This document shows, piece by piece, positions 1-43,900 of a stretch of 64,000 nt of DNA. The DNA comes from Amaranthus tricolor. Its lineage: Eukaryota > Streptophyta > Magnoliopsida > Caryophyllales > Amaranthaceae. Below the pieces are notes generated by a model. The model saw only the letters and a program-made list of their open reading frames with translations. It did not search any database and was not told where the DNA came from. The first letter of the stretch is position 1, and every line of letters begins with the position of its first letter. Position numbers and translations under genes: made by a program. The stretch spans positions 22,643,106 through 22,707,105 of the forward strand of contig NC_080060.1 in assembly GCF_026212465.1 (NCBI RefSeq), written 5' to 3'.

Positions 1-500
1 ACTTGTTGCTATTCATCTTCACAAACTTGTTGCTGTTCTTGTTGTTTCTTTTCATCTACTGTACATCATCAAAGTTGTGTTTTGAAGGTAAATCTTTGCT
101 TCTGTTCTTGTTCATCATCAAACTTCGAATTTTCATAAACCTACTTGTTGCTTCTGTTTTGTTGCTGTTCTTGTTGCTTCTGTTCATCTACTGTACGTGT
201 GATAAATATCTAAAAAAAACCTAAATTAATTACCTTATTTTTATTTTGAACCAACTTCGAATTTTTTTGCTGTTCTTGTTGCTGTTCATCGAATATAATT
301 ATGTTTCTGTTCATCTTCTTGTTGTTGCTGTTCTTGTAAAAAATCTTGTTACGTTGTTGTTCTTGTTGCTTATTCTTGTTGTAAAAAATCGAATATAATC
401 TTGTTGTTCTTATTGTTGTAAATCCTTGCTTCTGTTCTTGTTCTTGTTGTTGTCTAAATGCTTAAATTTGCTTCTGTTCTTGTTGTTGTCATATTTGTTT
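1..500. repeat. Degenerate CTTGTTG/TTGCTGTTC low-complexity repeat
   Basis: Irregular runs built from TTG, CTT and GTT trinucleotides (TTGCTGTTCTTGTTG and variants) recur throughout. A longer phrase ending TTCATCTACTGTAC occurs near 52-65 and again near 183-196, which suggests a local duplication at roughly 134-bp offset. The open frame it creates on the + strand is only Leu/Phe-rich low complexity and is not convincing as a gene. It lies inside the transposon upstream of the transposase and may belong to a 5' leader or intron (inference). Confidence 0.6.
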
Positions 501-1356
501 TTCACAATTTAACTGATTTAATTATTTCGATTTTAAATATTTTTAGTTGTGTATGTTTTAAAAATTATTAAAAATTAATATTAATAAAATTTAAATTTTA
601 ACGAATTAAATAAAATTTTACTTTACTATGTTTCAACTTATAGATTTTACATAAAATACTGATTTTTACATAAATGAAATAATTGTTTTGAATTGAAGTG
701 AGTATCTAGTATTTTAATGATTGTATTTATTTGCTTGAGGGTTAGGGAAATAGGTGAAATTTTATTATGAAAATATTAATATATCATTTCTTATTTTTCA
801 TGTTATTTCTAATATATAGTTAATACAAAATAATAATACTCCTAGTTGATAAATAATACTAGTATATTATTATTTGTGGAGTAAATAATTTTTTGTTCAG
901 AAAGTATTTTTAATTTTTAAGTTTCTTGTTCGTTTAATATTGTATGATTCGTTTATGTTGTTGTTGGAGTTCATTGATAAGCCACTAGACCGGATTTTAA
1001 GGGTGAATTGGACTTATGCTTGTTTGTACTCTACATCTAGTTTGTAGCTAGTATCATAAATTTTCAAATAAGATCACTATTAGGTTATATAATTTGATGT
1101 ATATTAAAGTCAATTATAACTTTAAATTTTATTTTTTTAAAAATTTTTAGAAAGATCATTATAATCAAAGAGTTTAAGTGCCTTCAAATAATTTGTAGCA
1201 ATTCTAAAGTGACCAATTATAGTTATAAAGTAATCACCTACAAGTCATCATTAACAATCTTAAAAAACATTATTAATTATTAATTTTTATTGTTTTTATA
1301 TGAATATTATTAATTATTGTTTTGTTTTGAATCAATTATTAATCACACTAATTAGG
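501..1356. other. AT-rich non-coding DNA upstream of the transposase
   Basis: I see no convincing coding frame, RNA gene or repeat here. The stretch is very AT-rich with many short A and T runs. It probably holds the 5' leader, a first intron or promoter sequence of the transposase, but I cannot place a TATA box or a transcription start with confidence. Confidence 0.5.
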
Positions 1357-3977
1357 ATGACAAACGATTGTTCTTGGATGTATGGAAGCATTGAATCGTC
1401 AGAATTTATTGATGGCGTATTAGAATTTTGTAGTATTGCGGTTGAACATCAAGTTAGGACGGGGGAGTTGGTTTTTATTGCCCATGTGTCAATTGTGGCA
1501 ATGTATCAAAGGTAGATAGTGTTGATATCCTTAGGGAGCACATACTTCGACGTGGGTTTAGGCCTCAATATCATGTTTGGGTTTGGCATGGTGAGGAGGG
1601 AGTTTACAAAGAGAAAAGTGTTGTTGAGGACGTCAATAATGTGGTCGATGTCAATGAGGAGGTAGTAGAACATGTTGATGGGTATGAGACAGATGAAGAG
1701 AATGTCGATGAGGATGTGGATCGTGTTGATGAGATGATGGAGGGAGTCGAGGATGAGTTAGGAAAACGTCCTCGTGTTTTTGACTTTTTGACAGAGGCTT
1801 CTCAAAAGCCTTTGTACCCTAGATGTACAAAGTTCACCAAACTAACAGCAGTGTTGACAATTTTCAACATTAAGTCAAAGTTCAATTGGAGTGACGCTAG
1901 TTTCACAATGTTATTAGAAGCGTTAGGTGAGATGCTTCCTGAGGGAAATGAACTTCCAAAGTCGACATATTATGCCAAAAAGCTCATGTGTCCTTTCGGC
2001 TTAGACTACCAGAAGATTCATGCGTGTCCGAATGATTGTGTGTTGTATCGGAATGAAAAAGAGAACTTAGAAGAGTGTCCTAGGTGTAGGTTATCGCGCT
2101 ACAAGCGTAAAGGGGCTCGGGATGCTAAAGGGCCCCCGGCTAAGGTATTGTGGTATCTTCCAATAATACCTAGATTCAAGCGCTTGTTTTCTATAAAGAA
2201 AGATGCGTTAAATTTGAGGTGGCATGCAGATAGGGTGAAGAAAGGTCACTTGCTCACACATCCGTCTGATTCACCGGAGTGGAAGAGTATTGATAGGTTG
2301 CATAAGACTTTTGGGGATGAGGTTCGTAATTTAAGGCTTGGACTGTGTACGGATGGAATGAACCCATTCGGCAATCTTGGTTCTCAACATAGTACTTGGC
2401 CGGTACTTTTAGTGATCTATAATTTGCCACCTTGGTTGTGTATGAAGCGTAAGTACATAATGCTTTCGCTTCTTATCTCGGGTCCTAAACAACCTGGCAA
2501 TGACATAGATGTGTATCTTGCACCTCTCGTTGAGGATTTGAGAAAGATGTAGGATGAAGGCGTTTCAGTGTTTGATGCATATGCTAATGAAGAGTTCACC
2601 TTGCGAGCAATGCTTTTATGCATCGTTAATGATTTTCCGGCATATGGCAACTTATCGGGGTATAAGAACAAAGGGAAGAAAGCATGCCCAATATGTATCG
2701 ATGACATGGAATCCACATGGATTCCTAAGTGCAAACACGTATTCATGCACCATCGAAAGTTCCTCCCACGAGACCACCAATATCGTAAGAAGAAGAAGTT
2801 GTTCAACGGGGAGGTTGAGGACCGTGTAGCTCGTCGACCGTTGACCGATTATGAGGTTTATGAACAGGTTAAGGGAGTTGAGACTGTATTTGGTAAAACG
2901 GGGCAAGTGCAAGGGGGTGAAGACCGATTATTGAAAAAAGAATCAATCTTTTGGAAGCTTCCATATTGGAGAGATCTACAGGTTAGGCATTGTCTTGACG
3001 TTATGCATATAGAGAAAAATGTATGCGATGCCATACTTGGGACTCTCATGAACATTCCGGTTAACACAAAAGATGTTAGGGCCGTGCGAGATTGGTTTGA
3101 ACGTAAGGGTCTTCGTCCGGAGTTGTGGGCACATGTTAAGGTGAGTAAGAAAAGGAATAGAGCTGATGAAGTTGGTGGCAGTAAGAAGAAGATGAGTAAT
3201 GACAAAGTTTATTTGCCTCCAGCTTGCTACACATTGTCCAAAGCAGAGAAGCGGACATTTTGTGAGTGTTTGTATGGCATTAAGGTTTCGTCTGGGTACT
3301 CATCCAACATGAAGAGATTTGTGAGCCTAAATGGTGATCTGAAGTTGGGAAGCATGAAATCTCACGATTGCCTTGTAATGATGCAAGTGTTCTTACCAAT
3401 TGCAATCCGTGGAATACTGCCAAAACATGTGAGATATGCTATTACCGAGCTATGTTCGTTCTTCAACACAATTTGTAGTAAAGTTCTTGATCCCTTTAAA
3501 CTTGATGCACTTCAACTCGACGTGATTGTAACTTTATGCAAGTTTGAGATGTATTTTCCACCTTCTTTCTTTGACATAATGGTTCATCTTATTTTCCATC
3601 TTGTTCGTGAGATCAAGCTTTTGGGTCCAGTTTTTTTAAGGTGGTGTTATCCTTTTGAAAGACACATGGGTCTTTAACAAAACAAGGTGAGGAATCCAGC
3701 ACAACCCGAGGGGAGTATGATTCAAGGCACTGTGAGCGATGAGATTAGAAACTTTATAGCCGAGTATTTGGCCATGGCAAAGCCTATTGGACTTCCCACC
3801 TCTAGACATGAAGGAAGGCTTGAGGGAAAAGGAACAATTGGCTCCAAATCGGTCACACCTCCTCGAGAAAGCCTTCTACAAGCACACTTGTATGTGTTGC
3901 ATCATATTCCGGAAGTTCATCCTTTTTTGAGTGAGCATTTTGATATATTGCATGCTCACACTAATTTAATTGTATAA
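1357..3977 (+). pseudogene. TNP2-family CACTA transposase, decayed
   Basis: This is a CACTA transposase, which in an intact element cuts and pastes the transposon in the nucleus. The ATG at 1357 opens with CSWMYGSIESSEFIDGV, a transposase-associated domain, which continues after a frameshift as CPCVNCGN and ends near HVWVWHGE (about 1588). An acidic linker follows (about 1600-1770). The TNP2 core comes next: a Cys pattern HACPNDC...CPRC, CTDGMNPFGN, YNLPPWLCMKR, GPKQPGNDIDVYL, FTLRAMLLCIVNDFPAYGNL and DVMHIEKNVCDAILGTLM. A DUF4218-like region follows (LPPACYTLSKAEK, SHDCLVMMQVFLPIAIRGIL), then RNPAQPEGSMIQGTV. Three lesions break it: a 1-nt loss in the T run at 1472-1476, TAG at 2550-2552 where the family has Trp, and TAA at 3675-3677. 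Homology stops near 3960 (HFDILHAHT), so the usual C-terminal DUF4216-type region is missing. Pieces between lesions share one frame, so decay looks recent. Confidence 0.93.
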
Positions 3978-4107
3978 ATTGAAATAGCAAAAGAGTCCAA
4001 AGAGATCTTGGAGAGAGGTCGGTTCCTCAGCAAAGGTGTCGACTGGGTCAAAGTCGATGCCAAGCACTCCAATTTTGACTGATGAGGAGCTAAAATATCT
4101 CTCTTAA

Positions 4108-7100
4108 GATTACAAATGGCTGCACTATTGTGCATCTCGCATAAGTGAGGAGGAACCAATCATTTTGCCCCTGCTGAAGGAGCAATACTGCTTTATAGAG
4201 AGCTCGTTTGTAATTATTGGTCCTAGTGACATCGGGCAATTTTTGAGAGGAGAGATGCTGAACGTAGCTCTTTTCCATGTCTACATGAGGTGATGTTCAT
4301 TATCTTACAAGTTAGGCATTGTTGTTCGTTTAATTGTTTTAATGACCGAATTACTAACAAAATTCTCTTATTTTTGAGTTTAGTGCGGCTTACGAGGAGC
4401 TAAATTCTTGCGAACCTCCAATAAATATTGGATGGTTTTGTCCGGAGTCGATTTCGGGTAGTAAATGTAGAAATGATCTAGATCAGGTCAGAGCATACAT
4501 TGAGACTGCTTTGACTAACTCCCTTGCATCTAAACACACATTCATTCTGGCTCCATATTGGGAAGAGTAAGTTTTATTATTGAAATTGAACTTATCTTTT
4601 GATTTTTAAAGTCACCTAATCTCTAATTTGTTGATTTTAAATTTGTGTTTGCAGTTTGCATTGGATACTTTTGATCATTTGTCCTTTAACGAACACTGTG
4701 CACGTCTTCGACTCATTACAAAAACCTCAAAGCCCACCTCGCAACACAAGATTCAAATCGTTGTTGAATACGTACGTAATATTAATTATTTTACCAATTT
4801 GATTTAATTAAGTGTTATATAAATATATAAATAGTATTACTTTTCCCATGCGTTTCAGCGCAATGAAAAGAGTGCGTGGACAAATGGGATCTACATCTAG
4901 AGCCACATTTCCAAAATGGATAGCAAGAAAGGTACACAAATTCGATTTTAAGTTGCGATTTTAAGGGTTTTTAAGCGTTTTTGTCAATTTCACGCGTAAC
5001 GTAGGTCAAACATGGTTTGTTATGCACGAAACTTGGCACACAACACTATTTGGCATATATTATTGTGTTGAAATGGTTAAAATTGAAAATAATAGTCATA
5101 TGCTAGAAATTAGAAGTTAAGTTGCGATTTTAAGTGTTTTTAAGCGTTTTTGTCAATTTTGCGCGTAAAGTAGGTCAAACATGGTTTGTTATGCACGAAA
5201 CTTGGCACACAACACTATTTGTCATATATTATTGTGTTGAAACGGTTAGAATTGAAAATAATAGTCATATGCTAGAAATTAGAAGTTAAGTTGCGATTTT
5301 AAGGGTTTTTAAACGTTTTTGTCAATTTCGCGCGTAAAGTACTCAAACTTGGTTTTGATGCGAAACCGGGGCTGATTAAGGCCTTTGTTATGCAAGGATT
5401 AATGTTGTGCGTAAGCTTTGATTAATGACACAGTCAAAAACTACAAATGATCATGAAAAGAACACGAAACAACTACAAACACTTAAACAAAATTCTGATC
5501 TAGCAAACTGTCGAGCAGCCCTCCTTCAGCTCAGCTTCTAGGAGTCCACGGGGATTGTTAGAATGGTTTTAGGACCTTGATAGCTAGAGCCAAGTACCAA
5601 GATTCCATTTCCACTTTAGCCTAGGTCCTGGATGCATAGGTTTGGTCTCCACGTGTCGTGCAAGGTGGTCTGGTCACTAGTTTGCTGCTGTGTCAATTTC
5701 GCGCGTAAAGTAGGTCAAACATGGTTTGTTATGCACGAAACTTGGCACACAACACTATTTGGCATATATTATTGTGTTGAAATGGTTAGAATTTAAAATA
5801 ATAGTCATATGCTAGAAATTAGAAGATAAGTTGCGATTTTAAGGATTTTTAAGCGTTTTTGTCAATTTCGCGCGTAACATAGGTCAAACATGGTTTGTTA
5901 TGCACGAAACTTGGCACACAACACTATTTTGCATATATTATTGTGTTGAAATGGTTAGAATTGAAAATAATAGTCATATGCTAGAAATTAGAAGTTAAGT
6001 TGCGATTTTAAGTGTTTTTAAGCATTTTTGTCAATTTTGCGCGTAATGTAGGTCAAACATGGTTTGTTATGCATGAAACTTGGCACACAACACTATTTGG
6101 CATATATTATTGTGTTGAAATGGTTAGAATTGAAAATAATAGTCATATGCTAGAAATTAGAAGTTAAGTTGCGATTTTGAGGGTTTTTAATCGTTTTTGT
6201 CAATTTCGCGCGTAAAGTACTCAAACTTGGTTTTGATGCGAATCCAGGGCTGATTAAGGCCTTGGTTATGCAAGGATTAATGTTTTGCGTAAGCTTTGAT
6301 TAATGACACAGTCAAAAACTACAAATGATCATGAAAAGAACACGAAACAACCACAAACACATAAACAAAATTCTGATCTAGCAAACTGTCGAGCAACCCT
6401 CCTTCTGCTAAGCTTCTAGGAGTCCACGGGGATTGTTAGAATGGTTTTAGGACCTTGATAGCTAGATCCAAGTACCAAGATTCCATTTCCACTTTAGCCT
6501 AGGTCCTGGATGCATAGGTTTGGTCTCCACGTGTCGTGCAAGGTGGCTGGTCACTAGTTTGCTGCTGTGTCAATTTCGCGCGTAAAGTAGGTCAAACATG
6601 GTTTGTTATGCACGAAACATAGCACACAACACTATTTGGCATATATTATTGTGTTGAAATGGTTAGAATTTAAAGTAATAGTCATATGCTAGAAATTAGA
6701 AGTTAAGTTGCGATTTTAAGGATTTTTAAGTGTTTTTGTCAATTTCGCGCGTAAAGTAGGTCAAACAAGGTTTGTTATGCACGAAACATGGCACACAACA
6801 CTATTTGGCATATATTATTGTGTTGAAATGGTTAGAATTGAAAATAATAGTCATATGCTAGAAATTAGGTGTTAAGTTGCGATTTTAAGGGTTTTTAAGC
6901 GTTTTTGTCGATTTTGCGCGTAAAGTAGCTCAAACTTTGTTTGTTTTGCACGAAACTTGGCACGCAACACTATTTGGTATATATTATTGTGTAGAAGTTG
7001 TTAGAATTTAAAATCATAGTCATATTCTAGAATTTACGTGTTAAGTTGCGATTTTATGCGTTTTTAACCGTTTTTGACACTAACATCTATTTTCTCTTAG

Positions 7101-7392
7101 TGCTTTCAACAACCTTCTTCTTCCGTTGACTGCGGCTACTACGCGCTGAAGTTTATGGACGATATTATAAATTCCGTGAAGGACTTTGGAGTCGAAAATA
7201 TAGATGTCGTAAGTATTTATTACGCTCTTAATTAAATATATTATTGGTATAATCTAATGTTAATATCTTTTATTTTAATATTATATATAGGTTTTAAACG
7301 ACATTCCGAGGGAAACACGCCCTTTGAGAAGTGAAGAGATGCGCGAATTAAAAGAAAAGATAGCCGTGCATCTTGCTAATATTTGTCCTTGA
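4108..7392 (+). CDS. Ulp1/C48-like cysteine protease carried by the transposon, six exons
   Basis: Proteases of this family cleave SUMO or related ubiquitin-like tags; plant transposons often carry copies of unknown role. Exons are about 3988-4289, 4384-4566, 4655-4771, 4859-4931, 7101-7208 and 7291-7392, each internal junction GT-AG and in phase. From the codon after an in-frame TAA (4105-4107) to the TGA at 7390-7392 the joined frame is 254 codons. The catalytic layout is complete: His in DLHW (4659-4661), Asp in VFDSL (4710-4712), Gln in FQQP (7107-7112) and Cys in VDCGYY (7131-7133); His-Asp spacing is 17 residues, as in yeast Ulp1. The TAA lies about 40 codons before the domain. It is either a nonsense mutation (CAA to TAA is the simplest path) or intronic; the frame upstream is open back to 3982. 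The first in-frame ATG after it is at 4255, inside the domain. The fourth intron holds the 2.2-kb satellite block. Confidence 0.85.
4940..5363 (+). repeat. Intronic satellite, first block (about 2.5 monomers)
   Basis: The monomer landmark GTCAATTT recurs at 4983, 5152 and 5321, exactly 169 bp apart. The block carries CACGAAACTTGGCACACAAC, the exact reverse complement of GTTGTGTGCCAAGTTTCGTG, which is common in the downstream array. The last monomer is cut after about 42 bp by the 328-bp segment. Confidence 0.92.
5364..5691. repeat. 328-bp non-satellite segment, copy 1
   Basis: This sequence is unrelated to the satellite and less AT-rich than its neighbours. It begins near CGGGGCTGATTAAGGC and ends near CTAGTTTGCTGCTG. 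It replaces about 127 bp of a monomer. I do not recognise it; it could be a fragment of another transposon captured before local amplification. It is about 96% identical by eye to copy 2. Confidence 0.85.
5692..6240 (+). repeat. Intronic satellite, second block (about 3.2 monomers)
   Basis: Three full monomers and a 42-bp truncated fourth run head to tail in the same orientation as the first block, with the intron-type signatures GTAGGTCAAACATGG and AATTAGAAGTTAAG. The truncation point matches that before copy 1 of the 328-bp segment. Confidence 0.92.
6241..6568. repeat. 328-bp non-satellite segment, copy 2
   Basis: This is a near-identical repeat of 5364-5691, with roughly a dozen substitutions and small indels by eye. 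It sits in the same monomer register. The two copies are about 878 bp apart, which equals the 370-bp interrupted monomer plus three 169-bp monomers, so the composite block was duplicated as a unit. Confidence 0.88.
6569..7080 (+). repeat. Intronic satellite, third block (3 monomers)
   Basis: Three monomers run up to the splice acceptor. The last one (about 6910-7075) differs from the intron subfamily and resembles the reverse complement of the big array: GTAGCTCAAACTTTG, TTGTTTTGCACGAAAC, AAAATCATAGTC and TTACGTGTTAAG. Confidence 0.9.
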
Positions 7393-7616
7393 TAAATTGT
7401 AATTATAGTAGATTATTTTTTATACTTTAACGTGTATATATATATATATGTACGTAATATTATATTATATATACGAGCGAGAGTTTATTATTACTATTGC
7501 ATTATTATAATGTTGATTAATGTGATTATCATTGGATTAATCACTGTTATTACATTGTATTATTGTTGCATTATTATAAAGTTAAAACAGAAAAAGAACA
7601 AAAAAAAGAAAAAAGA
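7393..7616 (+). other. 3' non-coding region of the protease gene with AT microsatellite
   Basis: After the TGA the sequence is AT-rich with a (TA)n run near 7433-7450 and an A-rich stretch near 7588-7616. No convincing coding sequence is present; the longest open frame here runs through the terminal repeats of the transposon. A possible poly(A) signal AATAAA lies just downstream at 7651. Confidence 0.6.
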
Positions 7617-7840
7617 GGTAGTTGCTGCGGTTTTGAACATGACCGCAGCAAATAAAGAGTGTTATTTGCTGCGGTTTTCAACCATGACCGCAGCAAATAA
7701 CACTCTTTATTTGCTGCGGTTTATGCCCATGACCGCAGCAAATAAGGCCCATATTTGCTGTGGTTTTGAACCGCAGCAATTAAAGTACGACATTTGCTGC
7801 TATCACAATTGCTGGGGGCCAAAACCGCAGCAAATGATGT
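7617..7840. repeat. CACTA 3' subterminal inverted motifs (GCTGCGG / CCGCAGC)
   Basis: The core TTGCTGCGGTTTT and its complement ACCGCAGCAAAT alternate about every 20-50 bp (7622, 7642, 7664, 7687, 7711, 7732, 7770 and 7825, plus degenerate copies near 7754 and 7792). In CACTA elements such clustered subterminal motifs bind the transposon's DNA-binding protein (family knowledge). The facing pairs form several hairpins. Confidence 0.85.
7642..7720. repeat. Perfect 34-bp inverted repeat with 11-bp loop
   Basis: The left arm at 7642-7675 and the right arm at 7687-7720 are exact reverse complements. Each arm also starts with ACCGCAGCAAAT and ends with ATTTGCTGCGGT, so each arm can fold on itself as well. 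The arms include an AATAAA (7651-7656). Confidence 0.9.
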
Positions 7841-7854
7841 TTTTTCCACTAGTG
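7841..7854. repeat. CACTA 3' terminal inverted repeat end
   Basis: The T run followed by CCACTAGTG forms the element's right end. CCACTAGTGG is palindromic, so the exact border could be off by one base. The next bases (GAAAGTGCCAAAAA) match the satellite consensus, which fixes the junction at 7854/7855. Confidence 0.8.
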
Positions 7855-10800
7855 GAAAGTGCCAAAAAATCTTTAAAATCCATAAAATCGCAATTTAGCA
7901 CTTGACTATGAAGTTCAATTCTCGCCACTTTATCACAATAATCTATACCAAATAGTGTTGTGTGCCATGTTTCGTGAAAAACAAACCAAGTTTGAGCTAC
8001 TTTATGCGCGAAAGTGCCAAAAAAGCTTAAGAAACCATGGAATCGACACTTAGCACGGAATTTCTCGCATATGACTATGATTTTCAATTATAAGCATTTC
8101 AACACAATCATTTATACCAAATAGTATTGTGTGCCACGTTTCGTGCAAAACAAACCATGTTTGAGCTACTTTACGCGCGAAAGTTCCAAAAAAGCATAAT
8201 AACCCATAAAATCGCAACTTAGCACGTAATTTCTAGTATATGACTATTTTTAGCATAGAAATAGGATTTTCAATTCTAACAACTTCAACATAATAATATA
8301 TGCCAAATAGTGTTGTGTGCCATGTTTCGTACAAAACAAAGCAAGTTTGAGCTACATTATGTGCAAAAGTGCCAAAAATGTTTAAAAACACTTAAAACAG
8401 CAACTTAACACATAATTTCTAGCATATGACTATGATTTTCAATTCTATCCACTTCAACACAATAATATATACCAAATAGTATTGTGTGCGAAGTTTCGTG
8501 TAAAACAAACCATGTTTGAGCTACTTTACGAGCGAAAGTGCCAAAAAATCTTTAAAACCCATAAAATCGCCACTTAGCACATAATTTCTAGTATATGACT
8601 ATGATTTTCAATTCTAACCACTTCAACACAATAATATATACCAAATAGTATTGTTTGCCAAGTTTCGTGTAAAACAAACCATGTTTGAGCTACTTTACGA
8701 GCGAAAGTGTCAAAAAATCTTTAAAACCCATAAAATCGCAATTTAGCACATGACTATTAAGTTCAATTCTCGCCACTTTAACACAATAATCTATACCAAA
8801 TAGTGTTGTGTGCCAAGTTTCGGGAAAAAAAAAACCAAGTTTGAGCTTCTTTATGCGCGAAAGTGCCAAAAACGCTTAAGAAACCATGAAATCGAAACTT
8901 AGCACGGAATTTCTTGCATAAGACTATGATTTTCAATTATAAGCATTTGAACACAATAATTTATACCAAATAGTATTGTGTGCCAAGTTTCGCGCAAAAC
9001 AAACCAAGTTTGAGCTACTTTATGCGCGAAAGTGCCAAAAAAGCTTAAATACCCATAAAATAGAAACTTCTTAAGTAATTTCTAGCGTATGACTATGATT
9101 CTCAATTATAACCAGTTCAAGACAATAATATATACCATATAGTGTTGTGTGCCAAGTGTCGTGCAAAACAAACAAAGTTTGAGCTAATTTATGCGCGAAA
9201 GTGCAAGAAACTTATAAAAACCCTTAAAATCACAACTTAACACGTATATTCTAGCATATGACTATGAATTTCAATTCTAACCACTTCAAGAAAATAATAT
9301 ATGCCAAATTTTTTTGTGTGCCAAGTTTCGTGCGAAACAAACCAAGTTTGAGCTACTTTATGCGCGAAAGTGTCAAAAACGTTTAAAAACCCTTAAATTC
9401 GCAACTTAACACGTAATTTCTAGCATATGACTATGATTTTCAATTCTAACCACTTCAACACAATAATATACCAAATAGTATTGTGTGCCAAGTTTCGTGC
9501 AAAACAAACCAAGTTACTTTATGCGCGAAAATGGCAAAAACGTTTAAAAACCATTAAAATGGCAACTTAATACGTAATTTCTAGCGTATGACTATGATTT
9601 TCAATTCTAACCACTTCAACACAAGAATATACCAAATAGTATTGTGTGCCAAGTTTCGTGCAAAACAAACAAAGTATGAGCTACTTTATGCGCGAAAGTG
9701 CCAAAAAAGCTTAGAAACCCATAAAATCGCAACTTAACACGTAATTTCTATTATATGACTATGATTTTCAATTATAACCACTTCAACACAATAATATATA
9801 CCAAATAATTTTGTGTGCAAAGTGTCGTGAAAAAATAGCAAAGTTTGAGCTACTTTATGCGCGAAAGTGCCAAAAAAGCATAAAAACCCATAAAATCGCC
9901 ACTTAGCACGTAATTTCTAGTATATGACTATGATTTTCATTTATAACCACTTCAACACAATAATATATACCACATAGTATTGTGTGCCAAGTTTCCTGCC
10001 AAGAAAAAACAAAGTTTCAACTACTTTATGCAAGAAAGTGAAAAAAAAGCTTAAAAACCATTAATATTGCAACTTAGCACGTAATTACTAGCATATGATT
10101 GTGATTTAAAACCCATAAAATCGCAAATTAGCACATGACTATTAAGTTCAATTCTCGCCACTTTAACACAATAATCTATACCAAATAGTGTTGTGTGCCA
10201 AGTTTCGGGAAAAAAAACCAAGTTTGAGCTTCTTTAGGCGCGAAAGTGCCAAAAAAGCTTAAGAAACCATGAAATCGAAACTTAGCACGGAATTTCTAGT
10301 ATATGACTATCATTTTCAATTATAACCACTTCAACACAATAATATATACCAAATAATTTTATGTGCAAAGTGTCGTGAAAAAAAATACAAAGTTTGAGCT
10401 ACTTTATGCACGAAAGTGACAAAAAAGCTTAAAAACCATTAAAATCGCAACTTAGCACGTAATTACTAGCATATGACTGTGATTTTTAATTCTAACCACT
10501 TCCACACAAGAATATATACCAAATAGTATTGTGTGCCAAGTTTCGTGTAATACAATCCAAGTTTGAGCTACATTACGAGCGAAAGTACCAAAAATGCTTA
10601 AAAACCCTTAAAATCGCAACTTAACACGTAAATTTTAGCATTTATAAAGCATTTTCTATTTTAACCACTTCAAAACAATAATATATGCCAAATAGTTTTG
10701 TGTGCTAAGTTTCGTACAAAACAAACCAAGTTACAGCTACTTTATGCGCGAAAGTGCCAAAAACGCTTAAAAACCCTTAAAATAGAAACTTAACACGTAA

Positions 10801-32350: not shown

Positions 32351-35300
32351 AAAAACCTCTTAAAATCGCAACTTAACACGTAATTTCTAGAATATGACTA
32401 TGATTTTAAATTCTTACCACTTCAACACAATAATATGTACCAAATACTGTTGTGTGCCAAGTTTCGTGCAAAACAAACCAAGTTTGAGCTACTTTATGCG
32501 TGAAAGTGCCAAAAAAGCTTAAATATCCATAAAATTGAAACTTAGCAAGTAATTTCTAGCATATGACTACGATTCTCAATTATAACCAGTTCAACACAAT
32601 AATATATACCAAATAGTGTTGTGTGCCAAATGTCGTGCAAAACAAACAAAGTTTGAGCTACTTTATGCACGAAAGTGCCAAAAACTTTAAAAACCGTTAA
32701 AATCGCAAATTAACACGTATATTCTAGCATATGACTGTGAATTTCAATTCTAACCACTTCAACACAATAATATATGCCAAATTATTTTGTCTGCCATGTT
32801 TCTTGCAAAACAAACCAAGTTTGAGCTACTTTATGCGCGAAAGTGCCAAAAACGCTTAAAAACACTTAAATTCGCAACTTAACACGTAATTGCTAGCATA
32901 TGACTATGATTTTCAATTCTAACCAATTCAACACAATAATATACCAAATAGTATTGTGTGCCATGGTTCGTGCAAAACAAACCAAGTTTAAGCTACTTTA
33001 TGCGCGAAAGTGCCAAAAAAGCATAAAAACCCATAAAATCGCAACTTAGCACGTAATTTCTAGTATATGACTATGATTTTCATTTATATCCACTTCAACA
33101 CAATAATATATACCACATAGTGTTGTATGCCAAGTTTCGTGCAAAAAAAAACCAACTTTGAGCTACTTTTCGCGCGAAAGTGACAAAAATGCTTAAAACC
33201 CTTTAAATCGCAACTTAGCACTTAATTTCTAGCATATGACTATGATTATAAATTATAACCATTTCAACTCAATAATATATTCCAAATAGTGTTGTGTGTC
33301 ATGTTCCATGCAAAACAAACGAAGTTTGAGCTTCTTTACGAGTGAAAGTGCCAAAAAATCTTAAAAACCCATAAAATGAAAACTTAACACGTAATTTCAA
33401 GCATATGATTGTGATTTTAAATTCTAACCACTTCAACACAATAATATATACCAAATAGTGTTGTGTGCCAAGTTTCGTGTAAAACAAACGATGTTTGAGC
33501 TTCTTTACGAGCGAAAGTGTCAAAAAATCTTAAAAACCCATAAAATCGCAATTTAGCACTTAATTTCTAGCATATGACTATGTATTTTAAATCTCACCAC
33601 TTTAACACAATAATATAATGTGATTAGTATTGTGTGCCAAGTTTCGTGAAAAACAAACAAAGTTTAAGCTACTTTTTCCGCAAAAGTGCCAAAAAAGCTT
33701 AAGAAACCATGAAATCAAAACATAGCACGAAATTTCTAGCATATGACTATGATTTTAAATTATAACCATTTCAACTCAATAATTTATACCAAATAGTGTA
33801 GTGTGCCAAGTGTCGTGCAAAACAAACAAAGATTGGGCTACTTTACGAGCGAAAGTGCCAAAAACGCTTAAAAACCTCTGAAAATCGCAACTTAACATGT
33901 AATCTCTAGAATATGACTATGATTTTAAATTCTTACCACTTTAACACAATAATATATACCAAATAGTGTTGTGTGCCAAGTTTCGTGCAAAACAAACCAA
34001 GTTTGAGCTACTTTATGCGCGAAAGTGCCAAAAAAGCTTAAATACCCATAAAATTGAAACTTAGCTAGTAATTTCTAGCATATGACTATGATTCTCAATT
34101 ATAACCAGTTCAACAAAATAATAAATACCAAATCGTGTTGTGTGCCAAGTGTCGTGCAAAACAAACAAAGTTTGAGCTACTTTATGCGCTAAAGTGCCAA
34201 AAACATTTAAAAACCTCTTAAAATCGCAACTTAACACGTAATTTCTAGAATATGACTATGATTTTAAATTCTTACCACTTCAACACAATAATATGTACCA
34301 AATACTGTTGTGTGCCAAGTTTCGTGCAAAACAAACCAAGTTTGAGCTACTTTATGCGTGAAAGTGCCAAAAAAGCTTAAATATCCATAAATTGAAACAT
34401 AGCAAGTAATTTCTAGCATATGACTACGATTCTCAATTATAACCAGTTCAACACAATAATATATACCAAATAGTGTTGTGTGCCAAATGTCGTGCAAAAC
34501 AAACAAAGTTTGAGCTACTTTATGCACGAAAGTGCCAAAAACTTTAAAAACCGTTAAAATCGCAAATTAACACGTATATTCTAGCATATGACTATGAATT
34601 TCAATTCTAACCACTTCAACACAATAATATATGCCAAATTATTTTGTCTGCCATGTTTCTTGCAAAACAAACCAAGTTTGAGCTACTTTATGCGCGAAAG
34701 TGCCAAAAACGCTTAAAAACACTTAAATTCGCAACTTAACACGTAATTGCTAGCATATGACTATGATTTTCAATTCTAACCAATTCAACACAATAATATA
34801 CCAAATAGTATTGTGTGCCATGGTTCGTGCAAAACAAACCAAGTTTAAGCTACTTTATGCGCGAAAGTGCCAAAAAAGCATAAAAACCCATAAAATCGCA
34901 ACTTAGCACGTAATTTCTAGTATATGACTATGATTTTCATTTATATCCACTTCAACACAATAATATATACCACATAGTGTTGTATGCCAAGTTTCGTGCA
35001 AAAAAAAACCAACTTTGAGCTACTTTTCGCGCGAAAGTGACAAAAATGCTTAAAACCCTTTAAATCGCAACTTAGCACTTAATTTCTAGCATATGACTAT
35101 GATTATAAATTATAACCATTTCAACTCAATAATATATTCCAAATAGTGTTGTGTGTCATGTTCCATGCAAAACAAACGAAGTTTGAGCTTCTTTACGAGT
35201 GAAAGTGCCAAAAAATCTTAAAAACCCATAAAATGAAAACTTAACACGTAATTTCAAGCATATGATTGTGATTTTAAATTCTAACCACTTCAACACAATA

Positions 35301-37923
35301 ATATATACCAAATAGTGTTGTGTGCCAAGTTTCGTGTAAAACAAACGATGTTTGAGCTTCTTTACGAGCGAAAGTGTCAAAAAATCTTAAAAACCCATAA
35401 AATCGCAATTTAGCACTTAATTTCTAGCATATGACTATGTATTTTAAATCTCACCACTTTAACACAATAATATAATGTGATTAGTATTGTGTGCCAAGTT
35501 TCGTGAAAAACAAACAAAGTTTAAGCTACTTTTTCCGCAAAAGTGCCAAAAAAGCTTAAGAAACCATGAAATCAAAACATAGCACGAAATTTCTAGCATA
35601 TGACTATGATTTTAAATTATAACCATTTCAACTCAATAATTTATACCAAATAGTGTAGTGTGCCAAGTGTCGTGCAAAACAAACAAAGATTGGGCTACTT
35701 TACGAGCGAAAGTGCCAAAAACGCTTAAAAACCTCTGAAAATCGCAACTTAACATGTAATCTCTAGAATATGACTATGATTTTAAATTCTTACCACTTTA
35801 ACACAATAATATATACCAAATAGTGTTGTGTGCCAAGTTTCGTGCAAAACAAACCAAGTTTGAGCTACTTTATGCGCGAAAGTGCCAAAAAAGCTTAAAT
35901 ACCCATAAAATTGAAACTTAGCTAGTAATTTCTAGCATATGACTATGATTCTCAATTATAACCAGTTCAACAAAATAATAAATACCAAATCGTGTTGTGT
36001 GCCAAGTGTCGTGCAAAACAAACAAAGTTTGAGCTACTTTATGCGCTAAAGTGCCAAAAACATTTAAAAACCTCTTAAAATCGCAACTTAACACGTAATT
36101 TCTAGAATATGACTATGATTTTAAATTCTTACCACTTCAACACAATAATATGTACCAAATACTGTTGTGTGCCAAGTTTCGTGCAAAACAAACCAAGTTT
36201 GAGCTACTTTATGCGTGAAAGTGCCAAAAAAGCTTAAATATCCATAAAATTGAAACATAGCAAGTAATTTCTAGCATATGACTACGATTCTCAATTATAA
36301 CCAGTTCAACACAATAATATATACCAAATAGTGTTGTGTGCCAAATGTCGTGCAAAACAAACAAAGTTTGAGCTACTTTATGCACGAAAGTGCCAAAAAC
36401 TTTAAAAACCGTTAAAATCGCAAATTAACACGTATATTCTAGCATATGACTATGAATTTCAATTCTAACCACTTCAACACAATAATATATGCCAAATTAT
36501 TTTGTCTGCCATGTTTCTTGCAAAACAAACCAAGTTTGAGCTACTTTATGCGCGAAAGTGCCAAAAACGCTTAAAAACACTTAAATTCGCAACTTAACAC
36601 GTAATTGCTAGCATATGACTATGATTTTCAATTCTAACCAATTCAACACAATAATATACCAAATAGTATTGTGTGCCATGGTTCGTGCAAAACAAACCAA
36701 GTTTAAGCTACTTTATGCGCGAAAGTGCCAAAAAAGCATAAAAACCCATAAAATCGCAACTTAGCACGTAATTTCTAGTATATGACTATGATTTTCATTT
36801 ATATCCACTTCAACACAATAATATATACCACATAGTGTTGTATGCCAAGTTTCGTGCAAAAAAAAACCAACTTTGAGCTACTTTTCGCGCGAAAGTGACA
36901 AAAATGCTTAAAACCCTTTAAATCGCAACTTAGCACTTAATTTCTAGCATATGACTATGATTATAAATTATAACCATTTCAACTCAATAATATATTCCAA
37001 ATAGTGTTGTGTGTCATGTTCCATGCAAAACAAACGAAGTTTGAGCTTCTTTACGAGTGAAAGTGCCAAAAAATCTTAAAAACCCATAAAATGAAAACTT
37101 AACACGTAATTTCAAGCATATGATTGTGATTTTAAATTCTAACCACTTCAACACAATAATATATACCAAATAGTGTTGTGTGCCAAGTTTCGTGTAAAAC
37201 AAACGATGTTTGAGCTTCTTTACGAGCGAAAGTGTCAAAAAATCTTAAAAACCCATAAAATCGCAATTTAGCACTTAATTTCTAGCATATGACTATGTAT
37301 TTTAAATCTCACCACTTTAACACAATAATATAATGTGATTAGTATTGTGTGCCAAGTTTCGTGAAAAACAAACAAAGTTTAAGCTACTTTTTCCGCAAAA
37401 GTGCCAAAAAAGCTTAAGAAACCATGAAATCAAAACATAGCACGAAATTTCTAGCATATGACTATGATTTTAAATTATAACCATTTCAACTCAATAATTT
37501 ATACCAAATAGTGTAGTGTGCCAAGTGTCGTGCAAAACAAACAAAGATTGGGCTACTTTACGAGCGAAAGTGCCAAAAACGCTTAAAAACCTCTGAAAAT
37601 CGCAACTTAACATGTAATCTCTAGAATATGACTATGATTTTAAATTCTTACCACTTTAACACAATAATATATACCAAATAGTGTTGTGTGCCAAGTTTCA
37701 TGCAAAACAAACCAAGTTTGAGCTACTTTATGCGCGAAAGTGCCAAAAAAGCTTAAATACCCATAAAATTGAAACTTAGCTAGTAATTTCTAGCATATGA
37801 CTATGATTCTCAATTATAACCAGTTCAACAAAATAATAAATACCAAATCGTGTTGTGTGCCAAGTGTCGTGCAAAACAAACAAAGTTTGAGCTACTTTAT
37901 GCGCTAAAGTGCCAAAAACATTT
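32351..37923 (-). repeat. Higher-order repeat, 1,857 bp (11 monomers), three near-identical copies
   Basis: Copies run about 32351-34208, 34209-36065 and 36066-37923. The phrase AAAAACCTCTTAAAATCGC starts at each boundary at intervals of 1,858 and 1,857 bp. Only isolated differences are visible, such as TGACTGTGAATTTC in copy 1 against TGACTATGAATTTC in copies 2 and 3, and a one-base deletion near 34390. Confidence 0.93.
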
Positions 37924-40900
37924 AAAAACCGTTAAAATCACAACTTAACACGTATATTCTAGCATATGACTATGAATTTTAATTCTAACCACTTCAACAC
38001 AATAATATATCCGAAATTTTGTTGTGTGCCATGTTTCGTGCAAAACAAACCAAGTTTGAGCTACTTTATGCGCGAAAGTGCCAAAAACGCTTAAAAACCC
38101 TTAAATTCGCAACTTAACACGTAATTTGTAGCATATGACTATGATTTTCAATTCTAACCCCTTCAACACAATAATATACCAAATAGTATTGTGTGCCAAA
38201 TTTCGTGCAAAACAAACCAAGTTTGAGGTACTTTATGCGCGAAAGTGCCAAAAAAGCATAAAAACCCATAAAATCGCAACTTAGCACGTAATTTCTAGTG
38301 TATGACTATGATTTTCATTTATAACCACTTCAACACAATAATATATACCACATAGTGTTGTGTGCCAAGTTTCCTGCAAAAAAAAAAAAAACCAACATTG
38401 AGCTACTTTACGCGCGAAACTGACAAAAAAGCTTAAAAACCCTTAAAATCGCAACTTAACACTTAATTTCTATCATATGACTATGATTTTAAATTATAAC
38501 CATTTCAATTCAATAATATATTACAAATAGTGTTGTGTGTCAAGTTTCGTGCGAAACAAACCAAGATTGAGCTTCTTTACGAGGGAAAGTGCAAAAAATC
38601 TTAAAAACCCATAAAATCAAAACTTAGCACGTAATTTCAAGCATATGACTGTGATTTTAAATTCTAACCACTTCAACACAATAATATATACCAAATAGTG
38701 TTGTGTCCCAAGTTTCGTATAAACCAAACCATGTTTGAGCTTCTTTACGAGCTAAAGTGCCAAAAAATCTTAAAAACCCATAAAATCGCAATTTAGCACT
38801 TAATTTTTAGCATATGACTACGTATTTTAATTCTCACAACTTTAACACAATAATATAATGTGATTAGTATTGTGTGTCAAGTTTCGTGAAAAACAAACCA
38901 AGTTTAAGCTACTTTGTCCGCGAAAGTGCCAAAAAAGCTTAAGAAACCATGAAATCAAAACATAGCAAGGAGTTTGTAGCATATGACTATGATTTTAAAT
39001 TATAATCATTTAAACACAATAATTTATACCAAATAGTGTAGTGTGACAAGTGTCGTGCAAAACAAACAAATATTGGGCTACTTTACGAACGAAAGTGCCA
39101 AAAACACTTAAAAACCTCTTAAAATCGCAACTTAACATGTAATCTCTAGAATATGACTATAATTTTAAATTCTTACCACTTCAACACAATAATATATACC
39201 AAATAGTGTTGTGTGCCATGTTTCGTGCAAAACAAACCAAGTCTGAGCTACTTTATGCGCGAAAGTGCCAAAAAAGCTTAAATACCCATAAAATTTAAAC
39301 TTGGCTAGTAATTTCTAGCATATGACTATGATTCTCAATTATAACCAGTTCAACACAATAATATATACCAAATCGTGTTGTGTGCTAAGTGTCGTGCAAA
39401 ACAAACAAAGTTTGAGCTCTTTTATGCGCGAAAGTGCCAAAAACTTTTAAAAACCGTTAAAATCGCAACTTAACACGTATATTCTAGCATATGACTATGA
39501 ATTTCAATTCTAACCACTTTAACACAATAATATATGCCAAATTTTTGTTTGTGCCATGTTTCGCTAAAAACAAACCAAGTTTGAGCTACTTTATGCGCGA
39601 AAGTGCCAAAAAATCTTAAAAACCTATAAAATCGCAATTTAGCACTTAATTTCTAGCATATGACTATTAATTTCAATTCTCACCACTTCAACACAATAAT
39701 ATAATGTAAATAGTGTTGTGTGCCAAGTTTCGTGAAAAACAAACCATGTTTAAGCTACTTTATGCGCGAAAGTGCAAAAAAAGCATAGGAAACCATGAAA
39801 TCGAAACATAGCACGGAATTTCTAGCATATGACAATGATTTTAAATTAAAACCATTTCAAAACAATAATTTATACCAAATAGTGTAGTCTGCCAAGTGTC
39901 GTGAAAAACAAACAAAGATTCGGCTACTTTACGCGCGAAAGTGCCAAAAACGCTTAAAAACCTCTTAAAATCGCAACTTAACACGTAATTTCTAGAATAT
40001 GACTATGATTTTAAATTCTTACCACTTCAACACAATAATATGTACCAAATACTGTTGTGTGCCAAGTTTCGTGCAAAACAAACCAAGTTTGAGCAACTTT
40101 ATGCGTGAAAGTGCCAAAAAAGCTTAAATATCCATAAAATTGAAACTTAGCAAGTAATTTCTAGCATATGACTACGATTCTCAATTATAACCAGTTCAAC
40201 ACAATAATATATACCAAATAGTGTTGTGTGCCAAATGTCGTGCAAAACAAACAAAGTTTGAGCTACTTTATGCACGAAAGTGCCAAAAACTTTAAAAACC
40301 GTTAAAATCGCAAATTCACACGTATATTCTAGCATATGACTATGAATTTCAATTCTAACCACTTCAACACAATAATATATGCCAAATTTTTTTGTCTGCC
40401 ATGTTTCTTGCAAAACAAACCAAGTTTGAGCTACTTTATGCGCGAAAGTGCCAAAAACGCTTAAAAACCCTTAAATTCGCAACTTAACACGTAATTGCTA
40501 GCATATGACTATGATTTTCAATTCTAACCAATTCAACACAATAATATACCAAATAGTATTGTGTGCCATGTTTCGTGCAAAACAAACCAAGTTTAAGCTA
40601 CTTTATGCGCGAAAGTGCCAAAAAAGCATAAAAACCCATAAAATCGCAACTTAGCACGTAATTTCTAGTATATGACTATGATTTTCATTTATATCCACTT
40701 CAACACAATAATATATACCACATAGTGTTGTATGCCAAGTTTCGTGCAAAAAAAAACCAACTTTGAGCTACTTTTCGCGCGAAAGTGACAAAAATGCTTA
40801 AAACCCTTTAAATCGCAACTTAGCACTTAATTTCTAGCATATGACTATGATTATAAATTATAACCATTTCAACTCAATAATATATTCCAAATAGTGTTGT

Positions 40901-43900
40901 GTGTCATGTTCCATGCAAAACAAACGAAGTTTGAGCTTCTTTACGAGTGAAAGTGCCAAAAAATCTTAAAAACCCATAAAATGATAACTTAACACGTAAT
41001 TTCAAGCATATGATTGTGATTTTAAATTCTAACCACTTCAACACAATAATATTTACCAAATAGTGTTGTGTGCCAAGTTCGTGTAAAACAAACGATGTTT
41101 GAGCTTCTTTACGAGCGAAAGTGCCAAAAAATCTTAAAAACCCATAAAATCGCAATTTAGCACTTAATTTCTAGCATATGACTATGTATTTTAATTCTCA
41201 CCACTTTAACACAATAATATAATGTGATTAGTATTGTGTGCCAAGTTTCGTGAAAAACAAACCAAGTTTAAGCTACTTTTTCCGCAAAAGTGCCAAAAAA
41301 GCTTAAGAAACCATGAAATCAAAACATAGCACGAAATTTCTAGCATATGACTTTGATTTTAAATTATAACCATTTCAACTCAATAATTTATACCAAATAG
41401 TGTAGTGTGCCAAGTGTCGTGCAAAACAAACAAAGATTGGGCTACTTTACGAGCGAAAGTGCCAAAAACGCTTAAAAACCTCTGAAAATCGCAACTTAAC
41501 ATGTAATCTCTAGAATATGACTATGATTTTAAATTCTTACCACTTCAACACAATAATATATACCAAATAGTGTTGTGTGCCAAGTTTCGTGCAAAACAAA
41601 CCAAGTTTGAGCTACTTTATGCGCGAAAGTGCCAAAAAAGCTTAAATACCCATAAAATTGAAACTTAGCTAGTAATTTCTAGCATATGACTATGATTCTC
41701 AATTATAACCAGTTCAACAAAATAATAAATACCAAATCGTGTTGTGTGCCAAGTGTCGTGCAAAACAAACAAAGTTTGAGCTACTTTATGCGCTAAAGTG
41801 CCAAAAACTTTTAAAAACCGTTAAAATCACAACTTAATACGTATATTCTAGCATATGACTATGAATTTTAATTCTAACCACTTCAACACAATAATATATC
41901 CGAAATTTTATTGTGTGCCATGTTTCGTGCAAAACAAACCAAGTTTGAGCTACTTTATGCGCCAAAGTGCCAAAAACGTTTAAAAACCCTTAAATTCGCA
42001 ACTTAACACGTAATTTGTAGCATATGACTATGATTTTCAATTCTAACCCTTCAACACAATAATATACCAAATAGTATTTTGTGCCAAGTTTCGTGCAAAA
42101 CAAACCAAGTTTGAGCTACTTTATGCGCGAAAGTGCCAAAAAAGCATAAAAACCCATAAAATCGCAACTTAGCACGTAATTTCTAGTGTATGACTATGAT
42201 TTTCATTTATAACCACTTCAACACAATAATATATACCACATAGTGTTGTGTGCCAAGTTTCCTGTAAAAAAAAAAACCAACATTGAGCTACTTTACGCGC
42301 GAAAGTGACAAAAAAGCTTAAAAACCCTTAAAATCGCAACTTAACTCTTAATTTCTAGCACATGACTATGATTTTAAATTATAACCATTTCAATTCAATA
42401 ATATATTACAAATAGTGTTGTGTGTCAAGTTTCGTGCGAAACAAACCAAGATTGAGCTTCTTTACGAGGCAAAGTGCTAAAAAATCTTAAAAACCCATAA
42501 AATCAAAACTTAGCACGTAATTTCAAGCATATGACTGTGCTTTTAATTTCTAACAACTTCAACACAATAATATATACCAAATAGTGTTGTGTCCCAAGTT
42601 TCGTGTAAAACAAACCATGTTTGAGCTTCTTTACGAGCTAAAGTGCCAAAAAATCTGAAAACCCATAAAATCGCAATTTAGCACTTAATTTTTAGCATAT
42701 GACTACGTATTTTAATTCTCACAACTTTAACACAATAATATAATGTGATTAGTATTGTGTGTCAAGTTTCGTGAAAAACAAACCAAGTTTAAGCTACTTT
42801 GTCCGCGAAAGTGCCAAAAAAGCTTAAGAAACCATGAAATCAAAACATAGCAAAGAGTTTGTAGCATATGGCTATGATTTTAAATTATAATCATTTCAAC
42901 ACAATAATTTATACGAAATAGTGTAGTGTGCCAAGTGTCGTGCAAAACAAACAAATATTAGGCTACTTTACGAACGAAAGTGCCAAAAACACATAAAAAC
43001 CTCTTAAAATCGCAACTTTACATGTAATCTCTAGAATATGACTATAATTTTAAATTCTTACCACTTCAACACAATAATATATACCAAATAGTGTTGTGTG
43101 CCAAGTTTCGTGCAAAACAAACCAAGTTTGAGCTACTTTATGCGCGAAAGTGCCAAAAAAGCTTAAATACCCAAAAAAATTAAACTTGGCTAGTAATTTC
43201 TAGCATATGACTATGATTCTCAATTATAACCAGTTCAACACAATAATATATCCCAAATTGTGTTGTGTGCTAAGTGTCGTGCAAAACAAACAAAGTTTGA
43301 GCTCTTTTATGCGCGAAAGTGCCAAAAACTTTTAAAAACCGTTAAAATCGCAACTTAACACGTATATTCTAGCATATGACTATGAATTTCAATTCTAACC
43401 ACTTCAACACAATAATATATGCCAAATTTTTGTGTGTGCCATGTTTCGCTCAAAACAAACCAAGTTTGAGCTACTTTATGCGCGAAAGTGCCAAAAAATC
43501 TTAAAAACCTATAAAATCGCAATTTAGCACTTAATTTCTAGCATATGACTATTAATTTAAATTCTCACCACTTCAACACAATAATATAATGTAAATAGTG
43601 TTGTGTGCCAAGTTTCGTGAAAAACAAACCAAGTTTAAGCTACTTTATGCGCGAAAGTGCAAAAAAAGCATAGGAAACCATGAAATCGAAACATAGCACG
43701 GAATTTCTAGCATATGACAATGATTTTAAATTATAACCATTTCAACACAATAATTTATACCAAATAGTGTAGTCTGCCAAGTGTCGTGAAAAACAAACAA
43801 AGATTCGGCTACTTTACGCGCGAAAATGCTAAAAACGCTTAAAAACTTCTTAAAATCGCAACTTAACACGTAATTTCTAGAATATGACTATGATTTTAAA

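What the first reader, a model, noticed from the sequence alone, without database searches (positions are those of the whole stretch)
4932..8700. One satellite family lies both inside a CACTA protease intron and in the 56-kb array beside the element
The intron carries about ten 169-bp monomers. Their phrase CACGAAACTTGGCACACAAC is the exact reverse complement of GTTGTGTGCCAAGTTTCGTG in the array, and the whole monomer can be aligned by eye. The intron of a mobile element is therefore either the birthplace of a major satellite or a vehicle that carries and re-seeds it. Tandem repeats inside transposons turning into satellites is a known idea, but a satellite in a protease intron facing its own array is, to my knowledge, unusual.
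Basis: partly seen in the sequence, partly recalled or inferred. Interest (0 to 1): 0.9.

Follow-up and report, generated by a model that had tools for sequence, protein, structure and literature searches.

The report
Transposon intron made of satellite DNA
In this plant genome (apparently an amaranth) the 169-base repeat known as the likely centromere repeat of grain amaranths fills one intron of a jumping gene's protease in copy after copy, so the jumping gene carries the satellite around the genome and may be where it came from.

Summary
Confirmed, and larger than reported. The intron at 4932-7100 of a CACTA Ulp1-type protease holds about 8.8 monomers of the 169-bp satellite that also forms the neighbouring array; it is the published Amaranthus putative centromeric repeat. 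It is not a single-copy accident: 44 of 45 assessable loci, window included, have it in the same intron (31 of 32 among loci picked without regard to the satellite), and the satellite-acceptor junction occurs 1,349 times genome-wide. In three copies of the deepest element clade satellite homology begins at the 5' splice donor. Intron-satellite type follows the element tree with a single change. The window element entered the array by ordinary insertion (TSD GAA), but its intron type (I) differs from the array's type (R), which is the intron type of the other element lineages. One 31.5-kb array elsewhere is element-derived: it carries an element-specific spacer and lies between a CACTA 5' end and the protease Cys exon. 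So 'vehicle that seeds arrays' is shown in one case. 'Birthplace' is favoured but not proven: ancient capture, or a satellite that created the intron, remain open without outgroup species. Satellites born in or carried by CACTA elements are known (Chenopodium, Arabidopsis); an intron made of a centromere-type satellite appears to be a new variant.

The parts
1..7854 (+). CACTA element, all but its first 558 bp; the full element is about 8,412 bp (C14:22642548-22650959)
   Evidence: 5' terminus CACTAGTGGAAAA at L021:9443 and 3' terminus CACTAGTG at 7847-7854, 3-bp TSD GAA on both sides
1458..3977 (+). tnp2-type transposase region (Transpos_assoc, Transposase_21, DUF4218), interrupted by in-frame stop codons
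4381..4931 (+). protease exons 4381-4566, 4655-4771, 4859-4931 (catalytic His and Asp region), here called exons 1-3
4932..7100 (+). satellite-filled protease intron (GT..AG, 2,169 bp)
4938..5366 (+). satellite block 1
5367..5690 (+). non-satellite spacer, copy 1
5691..6233 (+). satellite block 2
6234..6567 (+). non-satellite spacer, copy 2 (96.8% to copy 1, flanking satellite included)
6568..7079 (+). satellite block 3; its last monomer (6949-7080) is of the array (R) type
7081..7100 (+). non-satellite acceptor segment of the intron, shared with other copies of the family
7101..7393 (+). protease exons 7101-7208 (catalytic Gln/Cys box, exon 4) and 7291-7393
7622..7771 (+). 3' subterminal repeats (TTGCTGCGGTTTT.. 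units) of the CACTA element
7847..7857 (+). 3' terminus CACTAGTG followed by target-site duplication GAA
7855..64000 (-). 169-bp satellite array, R type (308 monomers cut for analysis)

Best explanation
The 169-bp Amaranthus satellite is the body of one intron of the Ulp1-type protease gene in a large CACTA family. Shown: the satellite is in this intron across the family, with the same acceptor-side junction in most copies seen; its sequence type is inherited with the element; transposition spreads it; and in one place (C1:16.350-16.382 Mb) an element-derived block has grown to about 31.5 kb. Inferred: the satellite arose when the intron's own sequence was tandemly multiplied in an ancestral element; further growth of such blocks, freed from splicing by deletion, gave pericentromeric arrays such as the R-type array here. 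The window element later jumped into that array, which derives from other element lineages. Splicing would remove the block, so the protease can tolerate its growth.
For: Satellite in the intron in 44 of 45 loci that keep a flanking exon, and in 15 of 15 with an exon match on both sides. Among loci chosen by protease similarity only, 31 of 32; the exception (L042) shows 48 bp and then Ns. Junction GGCACT|AACATCTATTTTCTCTTAG: 1,349 genome-wide with up to 3 mismatches, reversed control 0, against 1,453 acceptor-plus-exon sites counted without the satellite end. All 12 clusters in the listed part of contig C1 (listing capped at 100 places) adjoin protease exons at this intron. Satellite homology starts at the donor in L052, L054 and L057; the donor 15-mer of L013 matches the monomer at 14 of 15, while the best of 20,000 shuffles reached 13. 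Intron type on the element exon tree: one change over 36 typed elements, the 25 I-type elements in one clade (97*), the 11 R-type ones outside it. The array is R type: its consensus is 98.2% to the intron consensus of L014 and L025, and 259 of 308 array monomers lie nearer R-clade than I-clade introns, 25 equal, 24 the reverse. The element-specific spacer sits in the units read of the C1 array, which lies between a CACTA 5' end and the Cys exon.
Against: The monomer tree does not show the array nested inside intron monomers: the array can be held as one clade (p-AU 0.51), and the R-clade intron monomers as one clade are not rejected (p 0.10). No array monomer is over 93.5% identical to an R-clade intron monomer, so this array shows no recent exchange with the introns sampled. 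The donor match is weaker in other copies (12-13 of 15 in L012, L026, L028; 11 of 18 for the I-clade form). The ~45-nt part of the monomer not accounted for by the intron ends resembles neither flanking exon. The 3' end of the C1 array element was not found. Most satellite copies may lie in arrays rather than introns.
Confidence: 0.58

Rival explanations
1. Ancient capture: a pre-existing satellite entered the protease intron once, before this CACTA family radiated, and has been carried and modified since. The element is a vehicle but not the source.
For: One shared acceptor junction suggests one event, which could be a capture. CACTA elements of the same plant family are reported to capture satDNA: a 171-bp array inside C. 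quinoa CACTA elements (PMC8978399, sections 10 and 15). The array consensus is closest to the three-way ancestor of intron, array and A. hypochondriacus consensus: 4 private changes against 9 and 10.
Against: In L052, L054 and L057 no older intron sequence is left 5' of the satellite; homology starts at the donor itself. The 4-against-9 asymmetry is also expected because I is a derived element clade.
Confidence: 0.24
2. Satellite made the intron: satellite units inserted into the protease coding sequence and were turned into an intron, a monomer's GC becoming the GT donor. This is intron gain from tandem repeats.
For: The exon-intron border coincides with the satellite border. In some two-sided copies the intron is almost wholly satellite, e.g. 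L052 1907 of 1919 bp and L057 798 of 819 bp. Three of the nine PF02902 matches elsewhere in the genome run through profile positions 158-162 without a break at that place (C14:4508818 3-184 in one open frame; C9:23645661 135-192, with stops; C3:431512 146-191), i.e. no intron there.
Against: The ~19-nt acceptor is not satellite (best 10 of 19).
Confidence: 0.15
3. Local gene conversion from the adjacent array, or an assembly error, in this copy only.
For: Array and element are adjacent.
Against: Copies on many contigs carry the same intron structure. Intron monomers carry 9 private alleles of which no array monomer (308 cut) has more than 3, and identity to the intron consensus does not fall with distance from the element (Spearman 0.03).
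Confidence: 0.01

Closest known systems
CficCl-61-40 satellite and CACTA-like element Jozin, Chenopodium (PMC7320549: abstract and concluding section read)
   Same: A major satellite of Amaranthaceae s.l. related to the inside of a CACTA element, with a proposed continuing supply of monomers from the element.
   Different: There a ~40-bp monomer comes from the tnp2 coding region; here a 169-bp monomer is the intron of the protease gene, present as a tandem block across the element family.
171-bp satDNA inside C. quinoa CACTA elements (PMC8978399: abstract, sections 10 and 15, and passages read)
   Same: Similar monomer size, array inside a CACTA element, same plant family.
   Different: Read by its authors as capture, close to the 3' end, in four scaffolds. 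Here the block is in a defined intron, shared over deep element clades with one acceptor junction, and is the genus's putative centromeric repeat. The two monomers were not aligned to each other here.
Putative centromeric 169-bp repeat of Amaranthus hypochondriacus (PMC5577786, passages read) and pericentromeric AmC4 of A. cruentus (PMC11678860, passages read)
   Same: Same family: 169 bp; published consensus 91.1% (hypochondriacus) and 90.5% (AmC4) to the array consensus.
   Different: No CACTA or intron link for this repeat in the passages read. PMC5577786 does not hold the word CACTA. PMC11678860 mentions CACTA for genome proportions, and reports an AmC4-like tandem repeat in exon 3 of an A. 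tricolor non-coding RNA gene.
Arabidopsis ATENSPM-derived satellite arrays (Kapitonov and Jurka; known here only as cited in PMC7320549)
   Same: An internal region of an En/Spm element generates arrays.
   Different: Details not examined here.

Membership tests
CACTA (En/Spm) superfamily | tnp2-type transposase | tested here: met
   Transposase_21 E 4.1e-48 and 4.1e-30 on two reading-frame pieces
CACTA (En/Spm) superfamily | termini CACTA..TAGTG and 3-bp TSD | tested here: met
   CACTAGTGGAAAA at the 5' end, CACTAGTG at the 3' end, GAA on both sides
CACTA (En/Spm) superfamily | subterminal repeats | tested here: met
   TGCTGCGGT/ACCGCAGCA units at both ends
Amaranthus 169-bp centromeric satellite | 169-bp monomer alignable to the published consensus | tested here: met
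   array consensus 91.1%, intron consensus 88.8% to the A. hypochondriacus monomer
Amaranthus 169-bp centromeric satellite | long tandem arrays | tested here: met
   56 kb in the window; 12 of 14 points sampled from C14:22.30 to 22.73 Mb are satellite, one partly, one falls in an element copy
Amaranthus 169-bp centromeric satellite | CENH3 binding / centromere location | not testable with these tools
   A. tricolor's published centromere unit is 126 bp (PMC9847342, passages), so a centromeric role in this genome is not claimed
CACTA-derived satellite (Chenopodium type) | monomer homologous to an internal part of the element | tested here: met
   intron body
CACTA-derived satellite (Chenopodium type) | monomer from the tnp2 coding region | tested here: not met
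   low-threshold search of the monomer against window 1-4931 and 7101-7854 gives 21.1 bits, under the median of 100 shuffles (25.4)
satDNA captured by CACTA (C. quinoa type) | same satellite found free of the element in a species where no element carries it | not tested
   no second genome could be searched

The most novel reading that the evidence does not exclude
A centromere-class satellite of a plant genus was born as an intron: the sequence from splice donor to just before the acceptor of a CACTA protease intron became a tandem block, was spread by transposition to over a thousand loci with clade-specific variants, and repeatedly escapes into large arrays. Its mirror image, a satellite that became a spliced intron in a transposon and then multiplied with it, is likewise not described in any paper that my searches listed.
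Probability: 0.5. Interest if true: 0.88.

Novelty: new variant of a known kind. Interest (0 to 1): 0.78.

Why it matters
Where centromeric satellites come from is an old open question. Here one such repeat is tied to a single intron in a mobile element present in over a thousand copies, with intermediate stages: short intron blocks, multi-kb intron blocks and a 31.5-kb element-derived array. That turns the birth and dispersal of a centromere-type repeat into something datable and testable across amaranth genomes, and it shows how an intron can shelter a growing satellite inside a transposon.

Tried and rejected
Single-copy accident, local conversion or misassembly: rejected. Satellite made from other parts of the element: no signal over shuffles. 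Monomer containing exon 3 or 4 sequence: no support (p 0.79-0.94). Monomer trees as proof of direction: too little signal. Viral and prokaryotic contig collections for relatives: no confirmed hit. An outgroup through PF02902: 9 hits (150 of 342 candidates scored), which I take for host Ulp-type genes; that is my label, not tested. Three start near the place of our intron and three run through it, so they do not decide whether the intron is old. Right edge of the C14 array: satellite stops at about 22,732,397 beside sequence that I judged by eye to be a Copia-like retroelement; no intron junction there. In-register donor count: pattern AAAGGTACACAACACTATTTGGTATAT gave 5 exact and 14 one-mismatch sites; with 2-3 mismatches it also meets ordinary array monomers (7,822 in all), so only the 19 are used; by position they include L057 and L015.

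Results that cut against or limit the claim: L055 and L056 had no exon 3 and no satellite beyond chance within the 3.1 kb fetched, and L029 had no exon 3; these three were left out of the 45. L031 is the window itself and was left out. L030 is a near-identical duplicate of the window element and is counted. L054's exon 4 was matched weakly and misplaced, so its place among the 15 two-sided copies and its intron length are approximate. L023 is a marginal I-type call (0.58 to 0.42). L034, L040 and L042 are I-clade loci without the spacer in the stretch fetched. The counts 1,349 and 1,453 come from different patterns and are not nested sets. L022-L051 are the best matches to the window's protease, so close relatives dominate; L052-L057 were chosen as divergent ones. 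The donor 15-mer tested was chosen after seeing the match.
Full report
WHAT IS THERE. The window is C14:22643106-22707105 of a 519.85-Mb assembly. It is very probably Amaranthus tricolor: the published assembly is 520.08 Mb (PMC9847342, passages), 8 of the 9 protein hits of the protease are A. tricolor models, and the contig length given for the best hit, P0001, equals that of C15. A CACTA element occupies the window up to 7854; its 5' end lies 558 bp left of the window, and the element is about 8.4 kb. Both flanks are satellite and both carry the 3-bp duplication GAA, so it inserted into an existing array. Its transposase frame is interrupted by stop codons. The Ulp1-type protease gene keeps its splice sites and what I read, from recalled knowledge of the family, as its catalytic motifs (LHW, VFDS, QQP, DCG).

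THE INTRON. The other three resolved introns of the gene are 82-88 bp; the one between exon 3 (..KWIARK) and exon 4 (CFQQPSSSVDCGYY..) is 2,169 bp. Satellite makes up about 1.48 kb of it in three blocks, separated by two copies of a non-satellite spacer. The satellite is the 169-bp monomer published as the putative centromeric repeat of A. hypochondriacus (PMC5577786, passages) and as pericentromeric AmC4 (PMC11678860, passages). Array consensus to the first is 91.1%, intron consensus 88.8%.

NOT A ONE-OFF. The 20-base satellite phrase occurs 33,865 times exactly in the genome. All 12 clusters in the listed part of contig C1 adjoin protease exons at this intron. Of 48 loci (47 fetched plus the window), 45 keep exon 3 or exon 4; 44 of 45 have at least 100 bp of satellite there, and 15 of 15 with a match to both exons. 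Counting only the 35 loci chosen by protease similarity (window excluded), 32 keep an exon and 31 of 32 have the satellite; the exception has 48 bp and then Ns. The junction between satellite and acceptor is found 1,349 times with up to 3 mismatches, reversed control 0. The acceptor plus exon 4 start, asked without the satellite end, is found 1,453 times.

ANATOMY OF THE DEEP COPIES. In three copies of the deepest element clade (L052, L054, L057; exon 1 66-74% identical to the window's) satellite homology starts at the splice donor: intron nucleotide 1 corresponds to monomer position 12, with GT in place of the usual GC. The donor 15-mer of L013 matches the monomer at 14 of 15; in 20,000 shuffled monomers the best is 13; other copies give 12-13 of 15, and the I-clade donor form shows no such match. 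Nineteen genomic sites match the exon-donor-satellite string with at most one mismatch. The last ~19 nt before the acceptor are not satellite and are shared by the 11 copies and most of those; L052 has a variant.

INHERITANCE. Intron monomers fall into two types. On a tree of exon 1 and its surroundings, the 25 I-type elements form one clade (97*) and the 11 R-type ones lie outside it: one change over 36 typed elements, with L023 a marginal I call. The 3' edge monomer of the I-type intron here is still R type. The spacer is present only in I-clade loci and L023, L025 (27 of 48 loci). So the satellite travels vertically with the element.

FROM INTRON TO ARRAY. At C1:16,350,016-16,381,545 an array with a 779-bp unit (five units differ pairwise at 3-16 of 779 positions) contains the element-specific spacer. 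One end is the intron's acceptor junction with exon 4, the other runs into a CACTA 5' part whose terminus is at L078:3094. Continuity between the sampled ends rests on the regular phrase positions up to 16,376,481 and one sample. The transposase and the upstream protease exons were not found there. The C14 array in the window has no gap in satellite coverage over 60 bp, so no room for the spacer, and is R type: its consensus is 98.2% to the intron consensus of L014 and L025, and 259 of 308 of its monomers are nearer to R-clade than to I-clade introns. No array monomer is more than 93.5% identical to an R-clade intron monomer, so an origin from such introns is old or from unsampled ones.

WHAT IS NOT SETTLED. 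The monomer trees have little power. The published consensus is a little nearer to intron monomers (0.905) than to any array monomer here (0.882), which is suggestive only. Without elements from species lacking the array I cannot separate birth in the intron (favoured), ancient capture, and a satellite that became an intron. Of nine other Peptidase_C48 matches in the genome, three start at profile positions 158-161, near our exon 4 start (about 162), and three run through that place. On checking I had first told only the former; with both told, the hint that the intron is old is weak, and I moved 0.02 from the best explanation to the intron-gain rival.

KNOWN OR NEW. In Chenopodium, the CACTA element Jozin is linked to the major satellite through a tnp2 fragment (PMC7320549, abstract and section 8), and C. 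quinoa CACTA elements carry a 171-bp array read as captured (PMC8978399, sections 10 and 15). A paper on CACTA exon-intron structure (PMC4158355, passages) holds none of the words Ulp1, protease, satellite or tandem. In the searches, several with capped lists, I saw no title or abstract start describing this satellite in a CACTA intron; I read only passages of the Amaranthus papers, and subscription papers are not held. I therefore call it a new variant of a known kind.

Noticed in passing
C14:22.6166-22.6250 Mb (L030, L074): A second copy of the window's element lies 25,968 bp upstream (exon positions), identical over the 600 bp compared; a recent segmental duplication in the array or an assembly duplicate.
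   Followed up: partly
C1:16,349,886-16,383,693 (L020, L078): A CACTA deletion derivative whose interior is a ~31.5-kb array of a 779-bp unit (543 bp satellite plus 236 bp spacer).
   Followed up: partly
5367-5690 and 6234-6567: Spacer of unknown origin inside the intron satellite, flanked by repeats of TGTCAATTTCGCGCGTAAAGTA, restricted among the loci seen to one element clade and its nearest relatives.
   Followed up: partly
33988-41592: Identical array monomers at long spacings (starts 33988, 35845, 37703, about 1.86 kb apart, and 41592), pointing to a higher-order repeat of about 11 monomers.
   Followed up: no
C14:22.40-22.73 Mb (L068, L069, L085, L086): The array changes orientation, e.g. 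between 22,710,600 and 22,720,000 and between 22,400,400 and 22,450,000; the right edge at about 22,732,397 abuts what looks by eye like a Copia-type retroelement (L088).
   Followed up: partly
C10:14.763, 14.792, 14.821 Mb: Equal-scoring protease exon 4 matches about 29 kb apart, perhaps a segmental duplication containing the element.
   Followed up: no
L053:2016: A second copy of exon 4 preceded by only a short piece of acceptor sequence and no satellite, beside a normal satellite intron.
   Followed up: no
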